Shown here one piece after another: positions 4,408-57,988 of a stretch of 64,000 nucleotides of DNA (positions within the stretch are counted from its first letter, which is position 1; each line of letters opens with the position of its first letter). The translations under genes and the position numbers were made by a program. The notes below the pieces were generated by a model that was not told the DNA's origin, searched no databases, and saw only the letters and a list, made by a program, of their open reading frames with translations. The stretch is from Paratinospora sagittata (lineage: Eukaryota > Streptophyta > Magnoliopsida > Ranunculales > Menispermaceae), in contig CM069603.1 of NCBI GenBank assembly GCA_035771175.1, positions 25,148,286-25,212,285 on the forward strand, in the 5' to 3' direction.

Positions 4408-4818
4408 CACACCCTGGGTTGCACAGCGTGCCCCCTACCCAAGTGTGGGCGCACCCCCTCGGAGCGAACGCCTAAGCCATTATGGATCCATAATATTGTC
4501 ACATCTAGCCGAATTCGCGATACCCAACAGAGCCCTAGTAAGGGAGTAGATCATTTACCCCCACTATTCATGAATAGTGAAGGGCCTCCCCCAAGTCGAA
4601 CTCGTAACCTCCCCTTTAAGAGGTTAGATTTCGCACTTGGAGTAACCACTATTCATGAATAGTGGGGGTAAATGATCTACTCCGTTACTAGGGCCCTGTT
4701 GGGTATTGCGAATTCGGCTAGATGTGACAATATTATGGATCCATAATGGCTTAGGCGTTCGCCCCGAGGGGGTGCGCCCACACCTGGGTAGGGGGCACGC
4801 TGTGCAACCCAGGGTGTG
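4408..4818. repeat. 411-bp fold-back: 172-bp inverted arms around a 67-bp spacer
   Basis: Arms 4408-4579 and 4647-4818 are reverse complements of equal length. I counted five substitutions and no gaps (about 97% identity). The spacer is 4580-4646. Each arm itself contains two perfect palindromes: ATTATGGATCCATAAT (4479-4494 and 4732-4747) and CACTATTCATGAATAGTG (4562-4579 and 4647-4664), the latter at the loop-proximal tip. The outer edge lies 3 bp inside the TG...CA terminus of the solo LTR, so the last 400 or so bases of the LTR are a hairpin. It could be an inverted duplication of the LTR's own 3' end or a separate fold-back element that landed near the LTR edge. Confidence 0.95.
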
Positions 4819-17726: not shown

Positions 17727-19920
17727 TGTTGGCCCAGATGTGTCCAAAAGGGGGGTGAATTGGACAATGACAGAATCCTTTCTTTAAAAAATAGTTAATA
17801 ATATTCAACAGGTTATGGCAGTATTCAGAGAACATGCAACAAGAAACAATATGTAATAGTACACAAAGGATTTATAGTAGTTCAGCCTCGCCTACATCCA
17901 CTACCTAACCTCCCAGTTAGGATTTTGTTCAAACTCTATTACCTGATCTCTTACGGGTGAGAATCAAACTGTTACACCTTCTAAACTTATGAGTATGAGA
18001 AAACTGTTATAACATGAGAAATACTTGCTCAAACCAAGTGACACACACAGTTACTTAATAATCTGAAATACAAGTATAGAGTTTTGATTCCTTTACCAAG
18101 AATCAACGAAATACTTACTGAGCTTTCCTTGAACCCTAGTTGACACTGATTCAACAGAAAATGTATTATGAAGATCGGTTGAAATACTGAAGGTTCCAAG
18201 CTATTCTTTTCTTCAATAGATTTGAGAAAGTTTTGTAATGAGAATCAATAAATCCCAAAGAGAAATGTATCAGAGTTTTCGCAAAATGATCAGAGTTTTT
18301 ACTGCGAAAATGATAGTAGAACTTTCAATTTTTTTTTCGCTCAGATAATTTCATAGATACTCAGTTGTATATATCAGTTGTTCTATATGCTCAAAAACTT
18401 GAAGTGCAGTATGTATAGATAGCACTTAATCTCGGTCTTCAAGAAAGTTTTTGGCGCTCAAATCCATTTAAAATCAAACATTCAAATTGTTTTACGGAAA
18501 TGGATTGATTTAGATAGTGCAAAAACACCTGAATCCTCTGTGCTTTCACAAAATAAAAAGCTCGGAAAATAGCACATGTTGGCACAGTTATCAGCTTTTT
18601 GACAGTATTGTGTGAGCGTCCTGACGCAGAACACACCGTTTTGTCGTTTCTGCCTTTGAGGGCGCTCCTAGAGTGTGAGCATCTTGATGGACTTGAAGAT
18701 TTTAAAAACCAGAAAACAATGAGGGCGCTAATTTGCTAGTAGCGTCTTGATGCGTGTTAAACACAAAAATCCCAGAAATATGTAAGTGCGCTAACGCACA
18801 ATCAACGTCTTGACGTATCATTTGGTTGGTTCTATGAGGGTACTCCTCGACGAGTAGCGTCCTGACATGAATAGAACACATTCCAACTATCACGACCCAT
18901 GACCAGTGATGTCATGACCGGCACGGAACCCCCGGTGTCCCGTCAGCCTCATATAAACAACCTAATAAACATAAATCTCATACAAGCATCAAACTATATG
19001 GACGTAATCTATTCATTAAGATAATTACATCTTCCAAAAATGAAAACCATAAAAGTCCATAAGTCCAAAATATACAAAACATACATAACCATAAATACAA
19101 CCCATCTATGTGTTAAGTATACATATAATAGGTGTTATTAATTGCATATTTTCCAAAATACAAAAATGTACAAACACCTACATCACCAAAAATACAAGTA
19201 GCGCTCCAAATTCAAGCCTTCCCCTTCCCCTACTTATCTGAACCTCAAATGATAAGAATGAGGAGTGAGCTACAACAAGCTCAGTGAATGTTTTCTACAA
19301 GTCAAAATGACGTCATCCTAGGGTACGGGCTTTACACCAACCTATACACCATCAGCATCCTAACATTCTATTAGAGTCCTAACATGCTGGCTCCTCACTA
19401 AGTGATTGACCATCACATGAGCGTCTTGATGAGCTGTTAGCGCCCTGATGGAGCACTGAAAACTGATTTTTGATTTTTGATATTTTTTGATCTTTTCAAA
19501 GCTCGATTAATCGGTTTAAAGCTCGATAAATTTGGATCAAACTAATCATTGAAAGATTCATCAAAAGTGATAAAAAACAAACAAAAATCCTTCAAAAACA
19601 AATTGATCAAAATGTTTTCCTTTTGAAACTCATGCAAATATGCAAATATGCATCATAAGTAGTGTCTGCTGAATCAAGTGACATTAGAGATTTTACAACC
19701 CTAAATGACTCTAAAAACATAAAGATTAAATCTCGAACGATCGTGGTTTTCAGTCTGAAAATTGTCTTGATAGCTCTTTCACCATGCATCATCGAACTTG
19801 AGCAATCTTCATGCATAATTGAATGTGCAATATATATGCAATAATATCTTAATGAGAATGTGGTTTGTAATCATCAAAATATCTTTTCTTGTACGGGACA
19901 TGAGGGCAACTAGATTAACA
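17727..19920 (-). mobile_element. Sirevirus-type solo LTR, minus strand
   Basis: The minus strand begins TGTTAATCTAGTTGCCC and ends GATGTGTCC...GGGCCAACA. TSD is GTACT (17722-17726) and GTATT (19921-19925), one mismatch. Its length without the inner insertion is about 1740 bp. It shares the CACGTCCC-type start and the GGGCCAACA end with the LTRs at 46696, 51726, 53675 and 55400. The conserved hairpin block (CCTAAC...GTTAGG) lies near 17905-17922. Repeated 'gcgtcctga'-type boxes occur near 18610-18870 and 19415-19455. Confidence 0.9.
18888..19336 (-). mobile_element. 449-bp internally deleted chromovirus solo LTR
   Basis: Flanked by TSD CCAAC (18883-18887 and 19337-19341). On the minus strand the first 40 or so bases (TGTAAAGCCCGTACCC...) match the start of the 3034-bp solo LTR at 60524, and the remainder matches that LTR's final 400 bp. 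The terminal CA has decayed to TA. A complete TSD around both ends shows that it inserted as a retroelement and lost its middle, before or after insertion. Confidence 0.85.
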
Positions 19921-23055: not shown

Positions 23056-23996
23056 TGCCTCGGTGTGGTAATTTTCTTGCTCTATGTAGAGCAACTTTTG
23101 CAAAATCAAGAAAACTTGTGCAATTTTCTCTACATTATTTATACTCGTCCTAAAAAAGTTCTTAATCCATTTAATCCTTTATTCAAGGAAAAAGTTCACT
23201 TCATTTGTGTTTTTGATTCAATCTTTTGAAGAGTTCTCCTAACCATTCCAAAATTTTTGAGAAACTAAAAAGGAGTTCTAGAGTGTTGATCAAGGTGTTC
23301 TTAAGTGTTTTTCATCACATACTCGTTGTTCTTAATCATTCTTGGAAGAGAAAACTCTCAACCACATACACCTTGGAGAATCGACGATCTTCATCTTACC
23401 TAAGTTGGGTAACTTTTCTTTTAGATTCTAGTGTTTGTGCTTTGAGTAGAAACAATTTTTATTGCTTGTTTTTAACATATTATCAAAATTGTTTTTCTCT
23501 ATTGTGTGAAACCATACTTGCGCTTTTATCTTGTATTATCTTTATAATGGTTTCATGTGGTTTGATTAACGTCGATTCTTGTGCTTAATACGTATAATGT
23601 TTGAATCAATTGTTTTGATCATAACTTGTGTATATTGATTCACATGCTTGAACATTGATTATTTTGAATCGATAAGTTTTGATCAACAACTTGCATATTG
23701 ATTCTTGTGCTTCATTAATCATACTTAAAATCAATATTTAGAAATACATGTATGCATACAATTCTTGAACTTGCACAAATATACTTTGAATCGGTTGCTT
23801 GTATTTTTGAGAAACTATTTCAACATTGCACTTCATTTAAAATCATAGTGGTTGGAATAGTGATTGTTGATTCATTCAAGATTGTAAGCTTAAATTGTTG
23901 AGAGTGTTGTTATTCACTTCTCTATATCGTTGTAATCTTGATGTATTGTTGACTTGGTTAAGTCAACCGGTACATTACCTTATTTGTACGACACGT

Positions 23997-24167
23997 AACC
24001 ACGCCTATAAGTTGGTTGCAAGTTGTGGCTTACTAGCCAAGCTCCGATGTAGGCTAGATTGTGGATTTCTAACCAAGCCTTCGTGTAGGTTAGCATTGTA
24101 GTTGTTTTCTAACCAAGCCCTGATGTTGGTTAGTGTGAACGGCTTCTAATCCGCCTGTAAGTGATTA
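23997..24167 (+). repeat. Five tandem stem-loops with covarying stems, Sirevirus-I U5
   Basis: Stems and loops: AACCA/TGGTT (23997-24017, loop CGCCTATAAGT); CTAGCC/GGCTAG (24033-24057); CTAACC/GGTTAG (24069-24093); CTAACCAA/TTGGTTAG (24109-24133); TAATC/GATTA (24147-24167, loop CGCCTGTAAGT). The first and last loops are 11 nt and match the loops of the Sirevirus-II array. The middle three are 13 nt counted from a 6-bp stem and share an AAGC...TGT pattern. The array lies about 230-400 nt before the primer site, within the predicted RNA leader. Confidence 0.85.
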
Positions 24168-24399
24168 ACCAATAGTGGATTGGGAAATCCTGATCGGTGT
24201 GATTGTGTAGTGGATGTAGGTTTAAGGGGAACTGAACCACTCTAAATCATTTGTGCTCATTTATTTTCCTATATCTTTTTATTTGGATTGTTACCCATTG
24301 CGCATTGTAATTGTTTAATTAAAATATTAGAAAGGTAACACAAAAATCCGCCAAGTCCAATTCACACCGCTTCTTGAATGGTTATACTAGGCCAACAGG

Positions 24400-27016: not shown

Positions 27017-28931
27017 TTGTTTGCATATATAGTGTTTGACAAAATTCCTCCAAGAAAAACAATTGTTTCTAAACGTCGATTGGAGATCGGTGAATCATCT
27101 ATGCCAGCACCCAGGCCTACACGGCGACGTGTAGAGGTTGGAGAGTTCCCCACACCCACTCCACTATCCACGAGGCGACCCCGTGCCTCACAACCACCAC
27201 CTCGCGAGCCCTCACCACTATTATCTTCATCCTCATCGGATGATGATGTTACACTTTTTGTACCGCGACTTCACCCACATCACGACCTCCACTTCTTGAG
27301 GTAGTCGTCCGACCATTTGACACTTGACGTCTCGCTTCGAGCCTCCAAGTTGATTTTGACGACTTCACGAGGATTCACATGCCTCTATTCACCTACTTCA
27401 CCGAGATGATATGGGAGCAGTTCCTTTCTCATGACACCATCTACACTGAGTTAGTCTGAGTTTTCTACTCCGAGCTTGCTCTTGTTCCTGTCCTGTCGAT
27501 GACCCACTTCACTATCGCTCCTGGATTTTGGGCATTTACATTGACATATCTTCGTTCACTTTGGATGAGATATTTGAACTTTCCTCTGTTGATCATGCTT
27601 TCTCCTACTCTGGGGAGCACGATGAGATCGTCTTTCCTAATTATGATCGGATTACAGCTTTGAGGACCATGTCAGGAATGGAGCTTGGACATGGGGTGTT
27701 GATAGCGTCCAACACCATTCTTGGACTGCGGCTCAAGATCTTTCACAACATCATCTCCAGAGTTATCATTCCCCACTTGAGCTCTCGTGCGAAAGTAGAA
27801 CCTTTAGATGCTTTTCTTCTTTGGCGCATGAACAGCCGTACTAGTATTCGCCTATCCAACGTCATCATTAATCACATCATTGGGACACGACACTACACTA
27901 AGGCATTTCCCTACGGTGCTTTGGTGACATTGCTCCCCAAGAGTGCAAAAGTTGATTTCACGGGCTTCAGGGTGTCGATGAAGCCGAATAAGAATAACTT
28001 CAATGGAGAGAACACTATCCGATCACTCAGATATCAGTGGGTAGGACACATCTGTGATTGAGTGCACATATCCAGGAGATGTCAGGGCGAGGGCACCAGA
28101 TTCATCAGTTTTGATTCGCAGACAACGCCACCCGAGGAGAGAGAAGGGGGTGCAGCACCAGTAGCTCGTCCGCGTGGATGACGAGCAGCACCAGCTCCAG
28201 CACGGGCTGAGGCACATCCGGGACTTGTCCATGGTAGAACGAGATTCTCATATGCCAGGGGTTTATCTTCGGGTACTGCGCTACCAGTGGATATACTATG
28301 CCCCTCCCTTTCAGCTACTTTAGATGTCATTCTACAGACGCTGACAAAGACACGAGACCAGCAGCAGATATTGTTTCCTTCTTTTTTTTCCATAGAGAAA
28401 AAATGCGATGATCTGGCCTCAGATGTTCATGCTCATGGAGTTTTGCTCCAGATTATTCTTGATCGACTACCGGTTGAGGAGCAACATGAGTACAGCTTCA
28501 GTCAGGAGGATGTTTTTGGCGACAGAGAGCAGCCCGCACCATCACCAAGATTTCATCAGCCTACTTTGCCTGTTCATCACGATTCAGCTTTCGCTCCCTC
28601 ATCCAGTTCTCCACCAGTGACCACTGCCTTAGCTCTGATCCCTTTATCAGTTGCACCTCCAAGGATTCCCATTCCCAGGTTGCATCTTTTGTTCGCTTTG
28701 GCAGACTCAGCTCTTGATCTAGTTTTCTCACTTCCACGCATTTCTCCACCATCTCTGGGACGTTATCTAGTTATTCACTCAGGATCCACTTTAGCTACTT
28801 CATATGTTGCCACCGTTTTCATACCTGATACAGATGTTGGTACCACCCCCATGGAGGACAATGCCCCGACATCATCGGATATAATCACTGGGCTCGAATC
28901 TCTTGATCCTCAATCGTCACCTCAGTCATAA
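27017..28931 (+). pseudogene. Third ORF with plant-transposon-protein-like domain
   Basis: The N-terminus is basic and proline/serine-rich (RRLEIGESSMPAPRPTRRR; near 27176-27240 PPPREPSPLLSSSSSDDD). The central part, about 27370-28060, reads HMPLFTYFTEM, a stop at 27458, VFYSELALVP, then in another frame IYIDISSFTLDEIFEL and DAFLLWRMN...FPYGALVT. This layout resembles the 'putative plant transposon protein' domain found in plant retroelement accessory ORFs. The C-terminus (28287-28931) is a helix-forming then proline/serine-rich tail. Two or three frame breaks are visible. It could be the env-like third ORF of Sireviruses or a captured sequence. Domain assignment is by recognition only. Confidence 0.6.
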
Positions 28932-30480: not shown

Positions 30481-30497
30481 ATCAAAAAGGGGGAGAT
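30481..30497 (+). other. Polypurine tract of Sirevirus-I
   Basis: AAAAAGGGGGAGAT directly precedes the 3' LTR start at 30498. This is the plus-strand primer position in LTR elements. Confidence 0.9.
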
Positions 30498-32756
30498 TGT
30501 TGATGTAACTACTCTCACCCAGTTTTGTTTTGATGATTGCAAACAACATACCTGTGTTAGCACTTTGACGTAGTTGTTTTAGTGCTAACTAGATATATCT
30601 AATGGATTCAACTGCAATGTCAAAACATGTGGAAGGAACGGTACTTCACGAAGATTCGAGAGCTTCATGGTTGTATTACTTTACTAGAATCTTAGTGTTG
30701 TAGAGTAACTGTTATTTGCTCCAACCACACATGATTTGCATATTTTCAAAAATCATTCATATAGTTTAATACACTTATGCATATACATGACTATATGATT
30801 AATCATGCATACACTTATTTTAATTTGATAATTATGCTATTACTTAGTCATAATTGTTTATCATGCATATAATGTTTAGTGTTTAACATGCATCTATCCT
30901 GTCAACTTTGCACGGTTTTATCGTTTCACATGTTTTGTAATTATTGCTTTTATCATTGGTATAATCGATTAGATTACTCATGTTTTAACTGTGTTAATTA
31001 TACCTTAATTGTGTCAAAAATATTTTTAAATGTTTTTACAATGTTAGTCTACGTTTTTCACAATGTCCTAAACCCAAAATAATAAAAATCAATTTCACTT
31101 GCCAGTGAAGGAACGAGCTCCTATAGTGAGGAACACACTCCTGAGCTTTTTCTCGAGTCGTAGTGTTTTTTTGAATAGGGTTAAGGAATGCGCTCCTTGT
31201 AAGAGGAATGCGTTCCTATGGCATTTCCCGAGACTCAGATTTTTTCTAATCAGGTAAAAGGAACGTGCTCTTGTTGCCAAGAGCAAAATGGAAAAAATTT
31301 AAGAGTTAGTGGTTCTTGTTGAAGGAACCCGTTCCTATGCCCAACAGACATATTGAAGAACGCGCTCCTTGATTGGAGGAAAATCTGAGATATTTCAGAT
31401 TTCAAACCAGAAATGCGCTCCTGTGTTCGATGTGGTATTTTTCTATAAATACCACACTTGCTCATTTAAAAAATAACTTTTGCAAAATCAAGAGAACTTG
31501 TGCAATTTTCTCTACATCATTTATACTCATCCTAAACAAGTTCTTGAGTTGTTTAATCCTGTAATCAAAACAAGAGTTCACTTCATTTGCATTTTTTATT
31601 CAATCTTTTGAAGAGTTCTCCTAACCATTCCAAAAATTTGAGAAACTAGAAAAAGTTCTTGAGTGTTGATTAAGGTGTTCTTAAGTGTTTTTAATAACAT
31701 ACTTATTGTTCTTGATCATTCTTGGAAGAGAAACCTCTCAACCACATACACCTTGGATAATCGACAATCTTCATCTTACCTAAGTTGGATAACTTTTCTT
31801 TTAGATTCTAGTGTTTGTGCTCTAAGTAGAAACGGTTTTTATTGCTTGTTTTTAACATATTATCAAAATCATTTTTCTCTATTGTGTGAAACCATACTTG
31901 TGTTTTTATCTTGTATTATGTTTATAATGGTTTCATGTGGTTTGATTAACACCGCTTCTTGTGCTTGATACATATATTGTTTGAATCTATTGTTTTGATC
32001 ATAACTTGTGTATATTGATTCACATGCTTGAACATTGATTATTTTGAATCGATAAGTTTTGATCAACAACTTGCATATTGATTCTTGTGCTTTATGAATC
32101 ATACTTAGAACCAATATGTAAAAATACATGTATGCATACGATTCTTGAACTTGCATAAATATACTTTGAATCGATTCCATGTAGTTTTGAGAAACTATTT
32201 CAACAAAACACTTCATTTAAAATCATAGTGGTTGGAATAGTGATTGTTGACTCATTCGAGATTGTAAGCTTAAATTGTTGAGAGTGTTTTTATTCACTTC
32301 TCTATATCATTCTAATCTTGATGTATTGTTGGCTTGGTTAAGTTTACTAGGACATACCTTATTTGTACGACATGTAACCACGCTCGTAAGTTGGTTGTAA
32401 GTTGTGGATTACTACTATTGTGGCTTTCTAACCAAGCCCTCATGTAGGTTAGCGTTGTAGTGGTTTTCTAACCAAGCCCTGATGTTGGTTAGTGTGAACG
32501 GCTTCAAATCCGCCCGTAAGTGATTAGCCAATAGTGGATTGGGAAATCCTAATCAGTATGATTGGGTAGTAGATGTAGGTTTAAGGAGAACCGAACCACA
32601 CTAAATCATTTGTGCTCATTTATTTTCCTGCATCTTGTTATTTGGATTGTTACCGACTGCGCACTTTAATTGTTTAATTAAAATATTAAAATGGTAACGC
32701 AAAAATTTGCCAAATCCAATTCTCCCCCTCTCTTGGATGGTTATGTTGGGCCAACA
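30498..32756 (+). repeat. 3' LTR of Sirevirus-I
   Basis: 2259 bp, same ends as the 5' LTR. It keeps a TATA box (CTATAAATACC, TATAAATA at 31444-31451), CG-rich dyads 31106-31425, and stem-loops at about 32377-32550: AACCA/TGGTT with loop CGCTCGTAAGT, and two CTAACC/GGTTAG units. One stem-loop of the 5' LTR array is missing here. Confidence 0.93.
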
Positions 32757-50040: not shown

Positions 50041-51660
50041 TGTTTGTTCATCTACATAACATAAAATACTTTTGATTTTGGTACTCATGTTGCCTTGAGT
50101 CCATGCATGTTCGCATCAATGAGAATACTTCTTTACACCCATGCAAGCTTTTTCCTTTTTACATTTATAACATTACATCTTAATATGGTATGCCCTTCTC
50201 TATGACATTTACGACATTTAGGTCTTTTGGTCAACAAAGTGTTATAATACTTTGGCTTTGATCCTTGAGTATGACCTATGCCTGCTTTATCAAATGCACA
50301 CTTCTGTGATCCTAGCATCATGTCAAACATTTTTTGTCCATTCATAAATTTAATCACTATACTATTTAGGTCTTCATTTTTCTTCCTAAGCAACTCAATT
50401 TCATTTTTCAATTGTTTGAGCATTAATTTGAGTTCTTCATTATCCAAAGATAGCTCATCAAGATCCTCCTGTTGAGACTCAATCTCTTCAAGAGATTCTT
50501 CTAAGTTTTTCTTAAGCTTTTCATTCTTCTTAATTTCTCTACTTAATTTGGTTTTTACTACATCACAAGCATGAGAATTAAGAACATCAAAACTATCAAC
50601 AAATGGTTTGGATTTTACCTCGGTGCTTGCCACAAGACAAATTGCAGCTTTGTGGTCTGAATCTGAGTCACTCTCACCTGAGCTTGTGTCATCCCATGTA
50701 GCTTTCAACACTTTCTTGCCCTTCCTCTTTGAGTTGAAATTCTTGTTATACTTGTTGGGACAGTCATTCTTAACATGGCCTGGTTTATTGCAACCAAAGC
50801 AAATAAATTCAGTGGGTTTAGCTTCAATTTTTTTTCCTTTATGGAAGTTAGTGCTTGTGCTTTCCTTTCTTTCTCTTCTAATCAACTTGTTGAACTTTCT
50901 AGACAACATAGCTATATCCTCATCCGTGCTCTCGTGTTCTGAAGTGTTTTCAGATTCGGTATCTACATTCAAAGCTATGGTTTTCTTTTCTTTATCCTCA
51001 ACCTTGGTTTGGACTTTGTTATTTTTCAGTTTCATTTCATGAACCATTAATGAACTACATAGTTCATCAAAGGTATACTCGGCTAGGTTCTTAGCTTCCT
51101 CTATTGCATTGGCTTTGGGTTCCCGTACTTTAGGTAAACCCCTTAGAATCTTTCAGACAGTTTTTTCCTGCTCATAAGTTTTTCCTAAAGTTCTCATTTC
51201 ATTCAAGTTTTTAGTAAACCGAGCAATGGCCTTTGCTATAGTTTCAGTTTCCTCCATTCTATAAGTTTCATAGGTTTCGATCAGCATTTGGAGCTTAACC
51301 TTCTTGACTTGCAAGGTTCCCTCTTGGGTTACTTCAAGTCAATTCCAGATTTCTCTAATAGTTTCACACGCACTAATTCTATTGAACTCATCACCAGATA
51401 AACTACAAAACAATATATTAATAGCTTGGTTGTTTAATAATTCTCTATTCTTCTTCTTTGGGGTCCATTCTTCTAACTCTTTGGGAACTGTAACACCATT
51501 TACAGTTTTGATAGGTGTAGGACAACCGTTTATCACAACATCCCACATTTCTAGGTCTTGGGCTCCAAGGTAGAATCTAATCCTACTTTTCCAATGAAGA
51601 TAGTTATCTCCTTTGAAAAATAGAGGTCTATTGGTAGAGTTTCCTTCACCAAGAATGGTG
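50041..51660 (-). pseudogene. Sirevirus-II gag with two zinc knuckles
   Basis: Minus strand. The N-terminal part (about 51650-51340) reads STNRPLFFKGDNYLHWKSR, then LNNQAINILFCSLSGDEF. A break follows. The long open stretch 51047-50133 (304 residues) has an acidic region (STDEDIAMLSRKFNKL), a first knuckle CFGCNKPGHVKNDC, a Lys-rich linker, a long coiled coil (KNLEESLEEIESQQEDLDEL to LLRKKNEDL) and a second knuckle CRKCHREGHTILRC. This two-knuckle, coiled-coil layout fits Sirevirus gag. No ATG is seen at the expected start near 51660. Confidence 0.9.
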
Positions 51661-51725
51661 TCTCTGTGACTTTGGTCTACCGTAGATAATCAAAGATTGT
51701 TAGATCTTTTGATAGGCAACCTGCT
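51661..51725 (-). other. Leader between primer site and gag, Sirevirus-II
   Basis: Short leader. The plus-strand CTGCT at 51721-51725 is one TSD copy of the solo LTR inserted beside the primer site. Confidence 0.8.
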
Positions 51726-53658
51726 TGTTGGCCCAGATATGTCCAAGAGGGGGTGAATTGGACACTTAGACAATTTAAAAATAATTACAATGGATAAATT
51801 AAAGTGCGGAAATTAAACAAATGTGAACAGTCGATTTATAGTGGTTTAGCTACTTGCTTATGTCCACTACCTAACCTCCTCAGTTAGGATTTTGAACCTT
51901 ATCACTAAGGGATTCTCTTACGGGTGAGAATCAAACCGTTACACCTTTTCTCAACTTGCAAGTGTGAGAACAACCGTTACACTGCTCAACTTACGGGTGT
52001 GAGGCAGACCTAAGCTTTCTCAACTTACGGGTGTGGAAAGACCGTTTCTCAACTTATGGGTGTGAAAAGACCAAACCTTGTTTAATATAAGACTATCAAC
52101 TCAGTAGTTTATCTAACTATTGTTACAACCTTGATATAGTATACAAGATATGGAATTGAGTACAATTGTATCCTATGAACTATCTCTCAAGTTTCCCTTT
52201 CAGCAAGAATGATATAAGTTAAAACAGTGTTGAACAATTTGAGTGAAAATAGTTCGAAATCTCAAATGGATTTTTAGATAAATATATAAATTTAGCTCAG
52301 TATGAAAATCATTTGAATACATAAAGTTTAAAAGAAAACTCTTTGAAAACAAAGTGACTTAAACTTTTTTGGCCAGATAAAAATTCAACTAGCTTTTAAA
52401 AAGTGTTTTCGCTCAGAGAATTTTCGGTGGTCTTAACATGTTAAGTGCCTGTATATATAGACTGTAGAGATGAAGTTGTTGCTCATTTGAATTTGAATTT
52501 CAAATATGAACGTTTACTCACAACAGCTAGAATATATCACGAAAATGGCAACTTTACATTTCATGAATATTTTGATTTTCTCCAGATACATGAATAAGGA
52601 AAGTTTTAGAAGACGTGGTTCGTGAATCAGAAAATATCTCATACAAATATAGAAGGTTGATTTTGTACGAAAATTTGTTCTAAAATGGTGGCCAAAAAGG
52701 ATGTACATGTCAGAACAACAAAAATATCATTTTTGTCGTTTTGTTCCTTTGAGGACGCTCATAGAGCATCAGCATCCTACTGAACAATGAAGTGACGGTA
52801 TTATTGAATCGTAAGCTTCCTAACTTACTTTGACAATTAAACGACTTAAATCATGAGGGCGCTACTCGATAGTAAGCATCCTGCTTTGTTTTAAAATCAC
52901 TTAAACGCACGAGGGCGCTACTCAAGAGTTAGCTTCCTGATATTTAAAATTAGTTTTAAAACAAACATAAAAGATCTTAAGTTCTTTGATGGACAGTAAG
53001 CGTCCTGAAAGTTATTAAGTTGATTCTAAAGATGAGGTCGCTCCTACACAAGTAGCGTCCTGATAGTTTATTTAACTTATAACTATCAGCGTCCTTAAAG
53101 ATAGAAATCACTTAAAAAGAAATAGAACTTTCAGAGAGCTAAAATTGAGTCAGCATCCTGACATTCTTAACGGTTGACAAAAAAAATGTCGCTACTTACA
53201 AATAAGCTTCCTTGTGAATCATTCTAATTCAACCTTGAGCGTCCTAATATTTTTATCAGCGTCTTGACTCGTCAAGTCCAGGAGGGCGCTGCTAAAACAT
53301 TAGCGTCCTGAGAAACTCTATAAAAGCGGTTGTTGGTTTCTCGATTAGAGCTCGATAAAGCATGATATTTTTGAATTAAATCAAATACTTTAAAAAATCA
53401 TAGAAATACCTTTAAGATCCGATGATCAAAATATGAAAATGATTAAATCTTGCTGAGAGCAAATTGATCGATAGACATTACATTCTAAGTACTGACAGAC
53501 TCAGAACTTTACTTGAGATGATCAATAGGCTTGTAAGCTCAGTTCCTTTATCTTAGTTTTTGATAAATTTGAAACACTTGACAAGATCATTAAAAACACA
53601 GATTGGAGATATTTGGAATCATCAAAACATTCATGTCATGGGGTTCATTGAAATAACA
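51726..53658 (-). mobile_element. Sirevirus solo LTR inserted next to a Sirevirus primer site
   Basis: Minus strand start TGTTATTTCAATGAACCCC, end TGGGCCAACA, 1933 bp, perfect TSD (plus strand CTGCT, 51721-51725 and 53659-53663). It contains a TATA-like TATATATAG (plus strand, about 52451), CG-type boxes 52750-53300, and U5 stem-loops at 51915-52075, including GATTCTC/GAGAATC (51911-51932) and TTCTCA/TGAGAA (51949-51971). Confidence 0.95.
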
Positions 53659-53660
53659 CT

Positions 53661-53672
53661 GCTCTGATACCA
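53661..53672 (-). other. Primer binding site of Sirevirus-II, initiator tRNA-Met type
   Basis: Minus strand TGGTATCAGAGC, two bases after the LTR end. The adjacent TSD overlaps its downstream end, so the nested solo LTR landed at its very edge. Confidence 0.92.
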
Positions 53673-53674
53673 AT

Positions 53675-54476
53675 TGTTGGCCCAAATATGTCCAAGACGG
53701 GGGGGGTGATTTGGACAACGAAGCAAATATGCCTTTTTAATAAAATAATTTGCAGATAAAAAATATAGTATAAGTTGATAAACAAAGGCAGAAAAATATC
53801 AGATAAGTAGCACAATGCACACAAATTTAGAGTGGTTCGGCTCTTGCCTACCTCTACTACCTAATCTCCATAATTATGATTTTTTCAAAACTCCAATATT
53901 GAATCCTCTTACGGGTAAGGATTAAACCGTTACACCGTTTCTCAACTTCACGGGTGTGAGAAAAACCGTTATACACTTGAACAACACTTGCTTAACCACA
54001 GTGACAAACACAATCACTTTTACAAACTAAATACAAGTTTGAGAATTTGATTCTCTTACCAAGAATCAAAGAAATACTTATAGAGAAATTTATAAACCTC
54101 ATACCAACACTGATTCAGCTATGAATGTATGATAAAGCTCGGCTGAAATTGTGAGGTAGATTGCTCCTCTTTCCTTCGATGAATTTGTAAGATATGTGAA
54201 GTTGAATCGATAAATCCAGAAGGTGATTGTAAATCAGAGTATTTTCAGAAGATTATCAAGAGTTTTTGCAGCAAGAAAATGATTGAATAGCTTTCAAAAG
54301 TTTATGCTCAAAAGACAAAATTATCTTTATTTTGTTTCAACGGTTCAAAAAGTTATTTATAACATACGCTCAGATTTTATTCTAAAAACGTTTTGGCCTT
54401 CCTTTTGAATTCAAATCAAACGGTAAAATTGTCTCATCAAAATGTGTATATTCAGACTGTTCGAGAAAACCAAAAG
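53675..54476 (-). repeat. Truncated 5' LTR of Sirevirus-II
   Basis: Minus strand 3' part of the LTR, ending TTTGGGCCAACA at 53675. It keeps the last hairpins: AATCCT/AGGATT (53904-53925) and TTTCTCA/TGAGAAA (53938-53963). It is cut off at 54476 by the LTR that starts at 54477. Confidence 0.85.
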
Positions 54477-54838: not shown

Positions 54839-55773
54839 TGCGAAATGCAGCTTTTTTTAAAGTTTTGTTGTGGGCCCAGCTCGTGGTTTAGCTTGTGTAA
54901 ACCCTTTAGAAAGAGGGGAAAGAAGTGGAGAAGAGGGAAAGAGAAGGAGTTGGAGCTTTTGAAGGTGTTCTAGCTCAAATAAACTACCATTGAAGGTGAA
55001 TGAAAGCTCTTTAATGGTGTAACTTTCACCACGAGCCACGGTTTTGGGTTGACCTAGGTTAGGGTTTTGGTTGCATGTACCCGAAATAGCTTAGAAATTG
55101 CTTGAATGTGTATCTTTGACCCTTAGCTATGCCCAATGTGTGTTTTCCAAACACTTGACCACGTTTTTGACGTTGTATGAGGTTAGGGTTTTGATGGAAA
55201 CCTTAAGAACCGAGATGCATGGTATGGAAATGGATTCCTAGTATGGATTTGAGTTCAATGGTAGCTTTTTCCCCAATTCCATGGTGAAATTGATGGAGTT
55301 TCATACATAGTGACCTAGCCCTAGATTTTTACTTAGGGTTGTGCTATGGGAGTGCATGTGACTTATGTTGGTTATCTTGGCATGCTTGAATGGATTATGT
55401 GTTGAACCAATTATCCTCACGTCCCTTACGAAGAATATGTCCCTGATATGAAAGATGTTTTGATGATTACAAACTACATTATGTTTATGATATTACTACA
55501 CATATGGCATATCTAATCTTACTTGAAGGTTTCAAAGAATAAATGATGGATGGCGAACGTATTAACAGATCTTCTTAGAGACCATGATCGTTTGAAGATG
55601 TTTAGTTGTATGATTAGATTCTGATAGGTTGTAGGACCTTCTATGTCATGTGATTCAGCAATATGCATGCCTGCATGTTTTAATCGATTGGTTGCATATT
55701 TGATTTAATCTGGTTACATTATGTTTTATCGAGCTTTAATCGAGAAATCAAAACCGCTTTTATAAAAGTATTT

Positions 55774-56260
55774 CAGGAAGCTAATGTTTTAGCAGCTCCC
55801 TTCTGGACTTGATGAGTTAGGACACTAATAAAATATTAGGAAGCTGAAAGTTAAATTGAACTGATTAATAAGGACGCTTACTTGTTAGTAGCGACCATTC
55901 TTTTATCAACCTTTGAGAATGTCTAGACGCTGATAAGTTATAAGTTGAATAAATTATCAGGACGCTACTTGTGTAGGAGCGCCCTCATCTTTAAAATCAA
56001 CTTAAATAACTTTCGTGATGCTTACTGTCTTCAGCGCACTTAACATTATTTTTTAAATACTACTTTTAAATATCAGGATGCTTACTCTTCAGTAGCGCCC
56101 TCGTGTGTTTAATGTTTTAAAACAAAACAGGACACTAACTATGAAGTAGCCCCCTCAAGATTTAAGTCGATTAATTGTCAAAGTAAGTCAGGATGCTTAC
56201 TATTTAGTAGCGCCCTCACTTCATCATTCAATAGGACGCTAATGTTCTATGAGCTCTCTC
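55774..56260. promoter_or_regulatory. Array of 28-bp dyads upstream of the Sirevirus TATA box
   Basis: Units of the form AGGAYGCTWACT + 4 nt + AGTAGCGCCCTC occur at about 55774 (weak), 55871, 55959, 56075, 56129, 56190 and 56233. Left and right halves are imperfect inverted repeats. Related boxes occur reversed in 52750-53300 and 18610-19455. Confidence 0.8.
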
Positions 56261-56558
56261 AAAGGAACAAAATGACAGAAAATATATTTTTGTTGTTCTG
56301 ACACTACTGTTATTTCTGATAACATTTTCAGAAACGTATGAATACTTTTCAGAATCGTACAACAACTTCATAATTTTTTAAACATTCTACAACTTCGTCA
56401 AAACATTCCTCTTTCATGACAAGATCAGATGATTCAGGTGCTATTGTCGTAATATGCATTAAGCTGAATCAATCCATTTCGGGAAAGAATGTTAACGTTA
56501 TATTTGAAATAACCTAGAGTGCCAAAAATCATCAAGTCCATTGTGCCTCTGTTATTCC

Positions 56559-56567
56559 TATATATAC
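56559..56567 (+). promoter_or_regulatory. TATA box of the Sirevirus LTR
   Basis: TATATATAC in 'attcctatatatacgcg'. Equivalent TATA motifs occur in the LTRs at 51726 (minus strand, near 52457) and 31444. Transcription would start about 30 bp downstream. Confidence 0.75.
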
Positions 56568-56967
56568 GCGTTGCCTTAGAGTAGAAAAACTAACTAATGA
56601 TATACGAAACTGACATTCATTCAAAACGTATTAACAGTTTTCATTTGTGTTAAAACACTTTTTGAAAGTCAGTCTTCGTTCACTTAGAATGTCAAGTCTT
56701 CTTGCTTGATCTTACAATCTTTTGAAAGAAAAATTTCAAGTCTTCTGGGTTGATTGATCTTCATGTTCACTATTTTGAAAACCCATAGAAGAAGACAAAA
56801 GTTATTTGAACCTGGGTTCAGAATAAACTTCATCATACATATTTTGTTGAATCTGTGATTACAGAAGGTTCAATCCAAAGCTTTGTAAATATCACTTTGA
56901 TTCTAAGTAAAAGGAATCGTACTTCATCTTGTATTTAATCTGTAGTGACTGGTTAGTCATTGGGCAA

Positions 56968-57172
56968 GAGCACGTGTTGCTCATAGTTGTAAATGGTTGT
57001 CTCACGCCCGTAAGTTGAGAAAAGGTTCTCTCTCACCTGTAAGTAGAGAATAGGTCTTCTCATACCCACAAGTTGAGAAACGGTCCTCTCACACCCGTAA
57101 GTTGAGAAACGGTAGTTCTCACACCCGTAAGTTGAGAAAGTGCACCGGTTTGATCTTACCCTTAAATAGGTC
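56968..57172 (+). repeat. Tandem stem-loop array with invariant 11-nt loops, Sirevirus U5
   Basis: Six units (stem/loop): TCTCA/TGAGA CGCCCGTAAGT (57000-57020); TCTCT/AGAGA CACCTGTAAGT (57029-57049); TTCTCA/TGAGAA TACCCACAAGT (57057-57079); TCTCA/TGAGA CACCCGTAAGT (57087-57107); TTCTCA/TGAGAA CACCCGTAAGT (57116-57138); GATCT/AGGTC TACCCTTAAAT (57152-57172, one G-T pair). A GAGCA/TGCTC hairpin precedes at 56968-56982. All six loops are exactly 11 nt, and stem changes are compensated. Confidence 0.9.
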
Positions 57173-57180
57173 CATAGTGG

Positions 57181-57246
57181 AGTTTGAAAAAATTCAAACT
57201 GAGGAGGTTAGGTAGTGGATGTGTAAGCGCAACCGAACCACTATAA
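57181..57246 (+). repeat. Conserved hairpins at the LTR 3' end
   Basis: AGTTTGAA/TTCAAACT (57181-57200), then TAGTGG...CCACTA (57212-57243). The second hairpin recurs in Sirevirus-I as AGTGG/CCACT (24209-24241) and in the LTRs at 17727, 51726 and 53675. Confidence 0.8.
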
Positions 57247-57988
57247 ATCTTGCTTGCATTGTCCCATTTACATTTGCTGTATTTAAATTGCTATACTTTG
57301 TTTAATCTGCTGTCATTATTCCGCACAACTTTATGAAAGGTTAAAATCTGCTAAGTTCACCCCCCCTCTTGGGCATATTTGGGCCAACATTATGATGTTA
57401 ATTTGAGTTTCCCCATGGTGTAGCATGTTGTTTAGTGCAAATTGGCCAAATTGCTAATGTAGAGATTTTCCCCCAAATTGGGGCATATGCTATGTATTGG
57501 CTTAATTTTGGGATTTGAGTTGTTTATGATCATTCTTTCATGGTTTGAATGTTAAATGATGCATTGGCCTTGATGATCATGAGTAGACCTAGGCTAAGTG
57601 TTAGACTTAGGTCTTGGAATTGGGCATGAATGGTTTCCATATGTTGAAGATTATTGATCATGGTATGAATGGATTCATTGGCTATGTTGGGAAGTTGGGT
57701 ATGAGTTTTATGTGTGAAATATGATGTTGATCATGAGATTAATTTATATGTGATTGTTTATATCACTTCAGGGCCATGATTGGATTGGATTAGTGTGGAA
57801 TCCTTGTGTGGATAACGTTGCTTGCATGGCTTGGTTGTGAGTAGTTCTTCCTTATGTTTATCACTTGTGTCATCATATTAAATTATACTTGTATGTTGAA
57901 AGTCATGAAATATTATTATGGAATTGCATGTGTGTAAATCATTATGAATTAGCATGCATTGAACATCTAGAAGGCTTGTGCTAGAGCA

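What the first reader, a model, noticed from the sequence alone, without database searches (positions are those of the whole stretch)
56968..57172. Tandem RNA-like stem-loops with covarying stems and a fixed 11-nt loop in the Sirevirus LTR
Six consecutive units have exactly 11-nt loops of consensus YRCCYGTAAGT, while stems differ (TCTCA/TGAGA, TCTCT/AGAGA, TTCTCA/TGAGAA, GATCT/AGGTC) and remain paired. The last unit covaries between LTRs: GATTCTC/GAGAATC at 51911-51932, AATCCT/AGGATT at 53904-53925, GATCT/AGGTC here. They lie about 440-610 nt after the TATA box and about 220 nt before the LTR end, so in the genomic RNA leader. Covariation suggests selection on structure, for example a Gag-binding packaging or dimerisation array. 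Conserved palindromic motifs in Sirevirus non-coding regions are known; I cannot tell whether this array is among them.
Basis: partly seen in the sequence, partly recalled or inferred. Interest (0 to 1): 0.88.

Follow-up and report, generated by a model that had tools for sequence, protein, structure and literature searches.

The report
Hairpin array in Sirevirus LTR leader
A family of plant retrotransposons carries, near the start of its predicted RNA, a row of small hairpins whose stems change sequence but stay paired while the loop keeps a common core, which suggests a selected RNA signal, perhaps for packaging the element's own RNA.

Summary
The array is real and not unique to this copy, which lies in a solo LTR (55400-57389). 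Six LTRs of five Sirevirus families in the window carry it, and 35 of 40 LTR anchors sampled on one contig have at least one such hairpin. Stem letters differ between families yet pair: in 243 distinct units 84% of pair cells are standard against 58% (maximum 69%) in a tree-based null; the three strongest of 300 column pairs are stem pairs (E 0.002, 0.002, 0.011 for the given structure; 0.06, 0.06, 0.37 over all pairs). Stems vary less than loops and spacers in five families. Two details of the finding are wrong: the loop is not rigid, and the last hairpin usually has a 7-bp stem and 8-nt loop, damaged in this copy. Published Sirevirus repeat boxes lie upstream of TATA; this array lies downstream. 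Sense-strand preference is modest and folding energy ordinary. Best reading: a multi-copy RNA hairpin signal in the genomic-RNA leader, perhaps bound by Gag; function is inferred and the transcription start unmapped. The open-access searches I ran showed no description of it.

The parts
55400..57389 (+). solo LTR (family F1), flanked by target-site duplication TTATG (55395-55399, 57390-57394)
   Evidence: sequence; no PBS after the LTR end
56558..56566 (+). TATA box CTATATATA (predicted promoter)
   Evidence: 438-440 nt upstream of the array
56961..56983 (+). upstream hairpin H0, TGGGCAA/TTGCTCA; in many F4 copies TGAGCAA-GTG-TTGCTCA
57000..57020 (+). repeat unit 1, TCTCA-CGCCCGTAAGT-TGAGA
57029..57049 (+). 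repeat unit 2, TCTCT-CACCTGTAAGT-AGAGA (A-T to T-A double change)
57057..57079 (+). repeat unit 3, TTCTCA-TACCCACAAGT-TGAGAA
57087..57107 (+). repeat unit 4, TCTCA-CACCCGTAAGT-TGAGA
57116..57138 (+). repeat unit 5, TTCTCA-CACCCGTAAGT-TGAGAA
57152..57172 (+). last hairpin L, shortened in this copy; the commonest form in its relatives is GATCTTC-ACCCGTAA-GAAGGTC
57213..57248 (+). downstream conserved motif TAGTGG...CGAACCACT with CTATAAAT (hairpin; possible second TATA or 3'-end signal)
   Evidence: a related pattern occurs 2982 times in the genome, 0 in the reversed control; this copy itself does not match that pattern exactly
57351..57372 (+). polyC integrase signal, in the loop of a weak stem CTAAG/CTTGG
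51911..52068 (-). array of family F2 (4 units plus L) in a solo LTR 51726-53658 with duplication AGCAG
53904..53962 (-). family F3: 1 unit (12-nt loop) plus L, in a 5' LTR followed by PBS ATTGGTATCAGAGC
17945..18001 (-). family F4: 1 unit plus L, in an LTR with near-matching flanks AATAC/AGTAC (probable solo LTR)
23996..24168 (+). family F5 5' LTR array, stems AACCA/TGGTT, CTAGCC/GGCTAG, CTAACC/GGTTAG, TAATC/GATTA
32375..32527 (+). family F5 3' LTR array

Best explanation
It is a set of small hairpins acting as RNA in the leader of the Sirevirus genomic transcript. Each displays a loop with the core RCCYGYAA on a stem whose letters may change as long as they pair; in the commonest form the loop folds further into a one-base 5' bulge, two pairs (R-C with G-U) and a six-base loop. 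Copy number varies (1 to 5 repeat units before a last hairpin of its own type). Shown: pairing is kept while letters change, stems change less than loops and spacers, the array has a steady place near the LTR 3' end, and the loop core recurs across families. Inferred: that the unit works as RNA, that it lies after the transcription start, and that a protein reads the loop; the likeliest reader is the element's own Gag, so that several copies give avidity and mark genomic RNA for packaging.
For: Window units: in 20 (19 distinct), 6 of 8 pairs have double changes (28 of 500 shuffles do as well on that count) and 90.8% of cells pair (0 of 500 shuffles); slid structures reach at most 40.1%. RNAalifold, not given the fold, predicts 7 of these 8 pairs. 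Pooled: 243 distinct units from F1, F2, F5, F6, 84.1% paired against a tree null of 57.9% (maximum 69.2% of 300); pairs 3-23, 4-22, 5-21 E 0.0019, 0.0019, 0.011 for 9 given pairs. Stem heterozygosity 0.060-0.102 against loop 0.131-0.190 and spacer 0.096-0.145 in five families. Motif-only sample: of 106 core motifs upstream of 40 anchors, 81 have a stem of 5 bp or more (best of 12 offsets) against a mean of 34%, maximum 44% of 200 runs, when flanks are swapped between loci. A model from F1, F2, F4 ranks the F3 unit and 3 of 9 F5 units above every non-LTR stretch of the window; the other 6 F5 units are missed at E 10. Distance from the array to the LTR end is 185-229 nt (sequence); a TATA-like site lies 387-440 nt upstream in F1-F4. 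Majority G-U rather than A-C at 4 to 0 of 127 family pairs. The gag ORF at 50133-51152 (-), which I assign to the F3 element, has a CCHC zinc knuckle.
Against: Over all 300 column pairs, not only the given ones, the best E is 0.063. No pair is significant inside any one family (0 of 127); for 79 distinct last-hairpin rows the tree test is not significant (82.3% against a null maximum of 83.5%; rows contaminated by neighbouring units). Folding energy is ordinary: z -0.07; local-fold z -1.54 to 0.08 in seven LTRs; with the region free to fold only 1 of 6 F1 hairpins has pairing probability above 0.5, with a 32-nt span limit 4 of 6; in F1 the antisense strand scores better, z -2.4. Within families the loop varies more than the stem, against a loop that must stay fixed; decay of its CpG may explain this (inference). 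In F2 the upstream flank (0.094) is as quiet as the stems (0.099). Strand preference is modest: 51 to 32 changes to G-U and A-C, p 0.048, while outside the stems C>T also exceeds G>A on internal branches (163 to 111). F2, F3 and F4 have further TATA-like sites at other distances, and F5 has none at this distance. No transcript, probing or Gag-binding data. F3 and the 21 F4 copies show only one repeat unit, so an array is not obligatory.
Confidence: 0.4

Rival explanations
1. Structured R-region element for reverse transcription or 3'-end formation: hairpins shared by the two ends of the RNA help first-strand transfer or control polyadenylation, as TAR and poly(A) hairpins do in retroviruses (recalled).
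For: The array is one part of a chain of hairpins (H0, units, L, CCTAAC/GTTAGG, AGTGG/CCACT, polyC stem) that runs to the LTR end. CACTATAAA follows the array in 26 of 40 anchors, CACTCTAAA in 10.
Against: The R/U5 border is not known; does not explain why the unit is multiplied.
Confidence: 0.2
2. DNA-level regulatory array: repeated dyad sites bound by a host transcription factor downstream of the start.
For: Plant LTRs often hold palindromic cis-regulatory repeats (PMC2829016; PMC10760457 passages). The stem test alone cannot tell DNA dyads from RNA stems; strand bias is modest. Within a family the half-sites are steadier than the spacer.
Against: Between families the half-sites differ and the spacer core recurs, the reverse of a dimer site. 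Loop positions 2 and 11 are A-T or G-T in 21 of 21 window units and 221 of 243 genome units, which fits an RNA pair.
Confidence: 0.17
3. Neutral by-product: tandem duplication of one chance hairpin plus template-switch repair that re-matches imperfect inverted repeats.
For: Unit number varies 1-5. Such repair also yields paired double changes (mechanism recalled, not from a call).
Against: Stems change less than loops and spacers; steady position and recurring core across families; majority G-U pairs are not made by exact re-matching.
Confidence: 0.13
4. Array of splice-donor-like sites (GTAAGT) that recruits U1 snRNP.
For: GTAAGT lies in 9 of 20 11-nt window loops.
Against: GT at loop positions 6-7 is in 9 of 20 window loops and 122 of 243 genome units; position 6 is the least conserved of the window loops.
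Confidence: 0.03

Closest known systems
Sirevirus repeated motifs (RM boxes), Bousios et al. 2010, PMC2829016 (text parts 2 and 3 and passages seen)
   Same: Multi-copy palindromic repeats in Sirevirus LTRs.
   Different: RM boxes lie upstream of TATA, are palindromes with few intervening bases and mostly a CGG-CCG core; this array lies downstream of TATA with 8-13-nt loops of shared core and variable stems. F1-type LTRs also hold RM-like repeats upstream of TATA (my reading).
Ty1 and retroviral packaging signals (PMC8396678, passages)
   Same: Structured cis-acting RNA near the 5' end of an LTR-element genomic RNA.
   Different: Ty1 has a pseudoknot and palindromes, with a proposed packaging region at +230-580; no tandem hairpins with a repeated loop in the passages seen.
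BARE two-promoter system (PMC3735527, abstract and passages)
   Same: Plant Copia LTR with TATA1 (packaged RNA) and TATA2 (translated RNA).
   Different: No such hairpin array in the passages seen; a second TATA in these LTRs is only a sequence guess (CACTATAAA in 26 of 40 anchors).
RNA-phage coat-protein operator hairpins (MS2, PP7; recalled, from no call)
   Same: Lower stem of free sequence, one 5' bulged base, short upper stem, conserved loop.
   Different: No relatedness claimed; loop and bulge letters differ; works-like comparison only.

Membership tests
Sirevirus LTR retrotransposon | 5' LTR/PBS junction CA/ATTGG-TATCAGAGC | tested here: met
   F3: CCAACA-ATTGGTATCAGAGC near 53673 (-); F5 has a variant, CCAACA-GGTGGTATCAGAAC. 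Not applicable to the solo LTRs F1, F2, F4.
Sirevirus LTR retrotransposon | polyC integrase signal near the LTR 3' end | tested here: met
   57360-57366 in F1; runs of 5 to 8 C also in F2, F3, F4, F5b; broken in F5a
Sirevirus LTR retrotransposon | PPT AGGGGGAG followed by AT/TG | tested here: met
   F5 at 30488; not testable for solo LTRs
Sirevirus RM boxes | located upstream of TATA in the upper LTR half | tested here: not met
   array downstream of the TATA-like site and in the 3' part of the LTR
Sirevirus RM boxes | CGG-CCG palindromic core | tested here: not met
   stems TCTCA/TGAGA, AACCA/TGGTT and others
Retroelement packaging signal | lies in the genomic-RNA leader | tested here: inconclusive
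   downstream of a predicted TATA in F1-F4; start not mapped
Retroelement packaging signal | binds Gag and is needed for packaging | not testable with these tools
   no binding or transposition data
Conserved structural RNA | covariation above phylogenetic expectation | tested here: met
   between families, for the given structure: 3 of 9 pairs E below 0.05; over all 300 column pairs best E 0.063; within families none of 127; home-made null, not R-scape
Known Rfam family | match at gathering score | tested here: not met
   0 matches in 64 kb

The most novel reading that the evidence does not exclude
The array lies between two promoters (TATA at 56558 and a TATA-like CACTATAAA at 57239 after the array), so that only the long transcript meant for packaging carries it and the shorter mRNA lacks it: a multi-copy, phage-operator-like Gag-binding tag that tells genome from messenger across Sirevirus families of this plant.
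Probability: 0.12. Interest if true: 0.85.

Novelty: new variant of a known kind. Interest (0 to 1): 0.62.

Why it matters
How plant LTR retrotransposons pick their own RNA for packaging is little known. A short repeated hairpin that can be found by sequence in many LTRs gives a direct target for binding and probing experiments, a marker for the RNA leader, and a second kind of Sirevirus inverted repeat besides the promoter-side boxes.

Tried and rejected
Splice-donor (U1) array: disfavoured, GT not conserved. Kissing-loop dimerisation: 20 of 21 window loops have no self-complementary stretch of 6. Known Rfam RNA: none. Relatives in viral contigs and in bacterial and archaeal genomes: none found by one protein query and five patterns; the 3 matches lack stems, the 7 matches were not inspected. 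Argument from folding energy: fails. Last-hairpin tree test: not significant. A first extraction of last hairpins failed from a scripting error at the end; pair counts were then made. The scan used pairing in its score, so its stems are not used as evidence; the sequence-based alignments and the motif-only sample are. Rows dropped: 17 units of wrong length; matches covering under 60% of a reference, identical rows and rows of 99% identity or more; the 12-nt-loop F3 unit left out of A2 and of the pooled test; last hairpins of F1-F4 not pooled, while that of F5 was (and those of F1 and F5 are in A2). Family F4 (20 fetched copies) came after the pooled test and is only.

Full report
What is there. 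The stretch 57000-57172 holds six stem-loops in a row. It sits in a 1,990-bp LTR, 55400-57389, flanked on both sides by TTATG and not followed by a primer-binding site, so it is a solo LTR. The polyC integrase signal and the CCAACA end match the published Sirevirus description (PMC2829016; I saw its outline and abstract, parts 2 and 3 of 7 of the text, and search passages).

The same array in the window. A motif scan and a covariance model find it in six LTRs of five families, which I label F1 to F5: F1 here, F2 at 51911-52068 (-), F3 at 53904-53962 (-), F4 at 17945-18001 (-), and F5 in both LTRs of one element, 23996-24168 and 32375-32527. The model R1, searched over both strands of the 64-kb window, puts its 20 training units and the F3 unit, not in training, above everything else, all in LTR sense orientation; the next hit scores 17.8 bits against 20.4 for the weakest unit. 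A model trained on F1, F2 and F4 alone finds the F3 unit (E 1.8e-4) and 3 of the 9 F5 units (E 0.031, 0.058, 0.84) ahead of any non-LTR stretch; the other 6 F5 units do not reach E 10. For the two best F5 units the structure adds about 10 bits over the sequence-only model, and lowers E from 0.17 and 0.42.

Structure. Twenty gap-free units (A2) give 90.8% standard pairs in eight pairs, six of them with changes on both sides; no shuffle of 500 reaches the percentage, 28 reach the six; sliding one arm drops pairing to 40.1% or less. RNAalifold gives the same fold less its outermost pair: stem, one unpaired 5' base, two more pairs, six-base loop. In the 21 window units loop position 2 is A (11) or G (10) with T at position 11, and C3-G10 is kept in 20 of 21. 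A tree-based null, my own script in the style of R-scape and not R-scape itself, gives 146 of 160 cells paired against 88 +- 14, maximum 125 of 2000, but only one pair with E below 0.05.

Genome-wide. The window lies in a 1.29-Gb genome in 4,049 contigs. Searches with five LTR 3' regions gave 40 to 44 matches each, a capped list. A sixth family, F6, was met by chance in the flank of one locus and searched too. From sequence-based alignments of 28, 22, 28, 24 and 20 rows of F1, F2, F3, F5 and F6, stem columns vary less (0.074, 0.099, 0.075, 0.060, 0.102) than loops (0.131, 0.190, 0.173, 0.137, 0.189) and spacers (0.142, 0.145, 0.106, 0.096, 0.144); they are also below both flanks except in F2, whose upstream flank is 0.094. 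Pairing is kept at 94.7-96.1%, above all 400 null runs in each family, but no single pair is significant within a family (0 of 127). Double-changed cells are 5, 6, 0, 1 and 12; null runs reaching them are 57, 16, 400, 338 and 3 of 400, so an excess is clear only in F6. Pooling 411 units, 243 distinct, from F1, F2, F5 and F6 gives 84.1% paired against a null maximum of 69.2%; the three strongest of 300 column pairs are all in the structure, with E 0.0019, 0.0019 and 0.011 for the nine given pairs and 0.063, 0.063 and 0.37 over all pairs.

Sampling by an outside anchor. A conserved motif downstream of the array, TAGTGGATGTAGG...CGAACCACT, occurs 2,982 times, and 0 times when read backwards. I took 320 nt upstream of 40 of the 100 listed places, all on one contig, 20 picked for different inner letters and 20 spread down the list. 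Of 106 loop-core motifs there, found without regard to stems, 81 have a stem of 5 bp or more at the best of 12 offsets; when 3' flanks are swapped between loci the mean is 33.9% and the maximum of 200 runs 44.1%; on the other strand 3 of 19. At least one hairpin is found in 35 of 40 anchors. A further type, F7, read by eye, has stems such as TTCCTT/AAGGAA around AGCCCGCAA and TTGCCTTT/AAAGGCAG around AACCTGTAA.

The last hairpin. In F1 the commonest form is GATCTTC-ACCCGTAA-GAAGGTC, in F2 GATTCTC/GAGAATC, in F3 GATCCTC/GAGGATT, in F4 GATTCTC with GAGAATC or GAGGATC. Counted from outside, pairs 4 and 5 are C-G or T-A by family. The tree test on 79 distinct rows of this hairpin is not significant.

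Which strand. G-U is the majority state at four family positions, A-C at none, of 127. Tree-counted changes are 51 to G-U and 32 to A-C (p 0.048), but outside the stems C>T also exceeds G>A on internal branches (163 to 111), so this is weak support for RNA on the sense strand.

What speaks against. The array region folds no better than shuffles (local-fold z -1.54 to 0.08 in seven LTRs). Each unit alone is weak, -0.9 to -9.5 kcal/mol. Within families the loop varies more than the stem. TATA-like sites at other distances exist in F2, F3 and F4, and F5 has none 350-500 nt upstream. Where transcription starts is unknown.

Reading. A DNA-binding dimer would hold its half-sites between families and let the spacer drift; here half-sites differ between families and the loop core recurs, the pattern of an RNA hairpin read at its loop. 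Repetition and position suggest a leader signal for a multimeric protein; the element's zinc-knuckle Gag is the natural candidate. An R-region role in strand transfer or 3'-end formation, and a DNA regulatory role, remain open.

Novelty. Searches for Sirevirus with palindromic, stem-loop and hairpin, SIRE1 with inverted repeat, BARE1 with packaging signal, copia with R region and stem-loop, plant retrotransposon with packaging signal, LTR retrotransposon with Gag and covariation (0 papers), and retrotransposon with hairpin array showed no such array in the listings. I opened six papers, by passages or sections only (PMC2829016, PMC3601003, PMC10760457, PMC3735527, PMC8396678, PMC12786077). A key paper on Sirevirus palindromes and host response (Genome Research 2016) was seen only as a citation, so prior mention cannot be excluded.

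Noticed in passing
57351-57372 and the LTR ends of F2-F5: The polyC integrase signal lies in the loop of a stem whose outer pair changes together in one family (GTCCAA/TTGGAC, ATCCAA/TTGGAT).
   Followed up: partly
57213-57248; related pattern at 2982 places in the genome: TAGTGGATGTAGG...CGAACCACT forms a hairpin with a variable inner stem (GGC/GCC, GGTTC/GAACC) and is followed by a TATA-like CACTATAAA in 26 of 40 anchors.
   Followed up: partly
51721-53673: F2 is a solo LTR inserted just after the primer-binding site of F3 (duplication AGCAG).
   Followed up: partly
55761-56240: RM-like repeats upstream of TATA: AGGATGCTTACT...AGTAGCGCCCTC arms in several copies.
   Followed up: no
4408-4818: A 411-bp foldback, 90% identical to its own reverse complement.
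   Followed up: no
27450-28061: ORF inside the F5 element with a Transposase_32 match below the cut-off (32.9 bits, cut-off 45).
   Followed up: no
17.7-57.4 kb of the window: Five pieces (LTRs F4, F5, F2, F3, F1) have copies shown as 100% identical, in the same order, at C2:33.325-33.365 Mb of the assembly: recent duplication or two assembled haplotypes.
   Followed up: no
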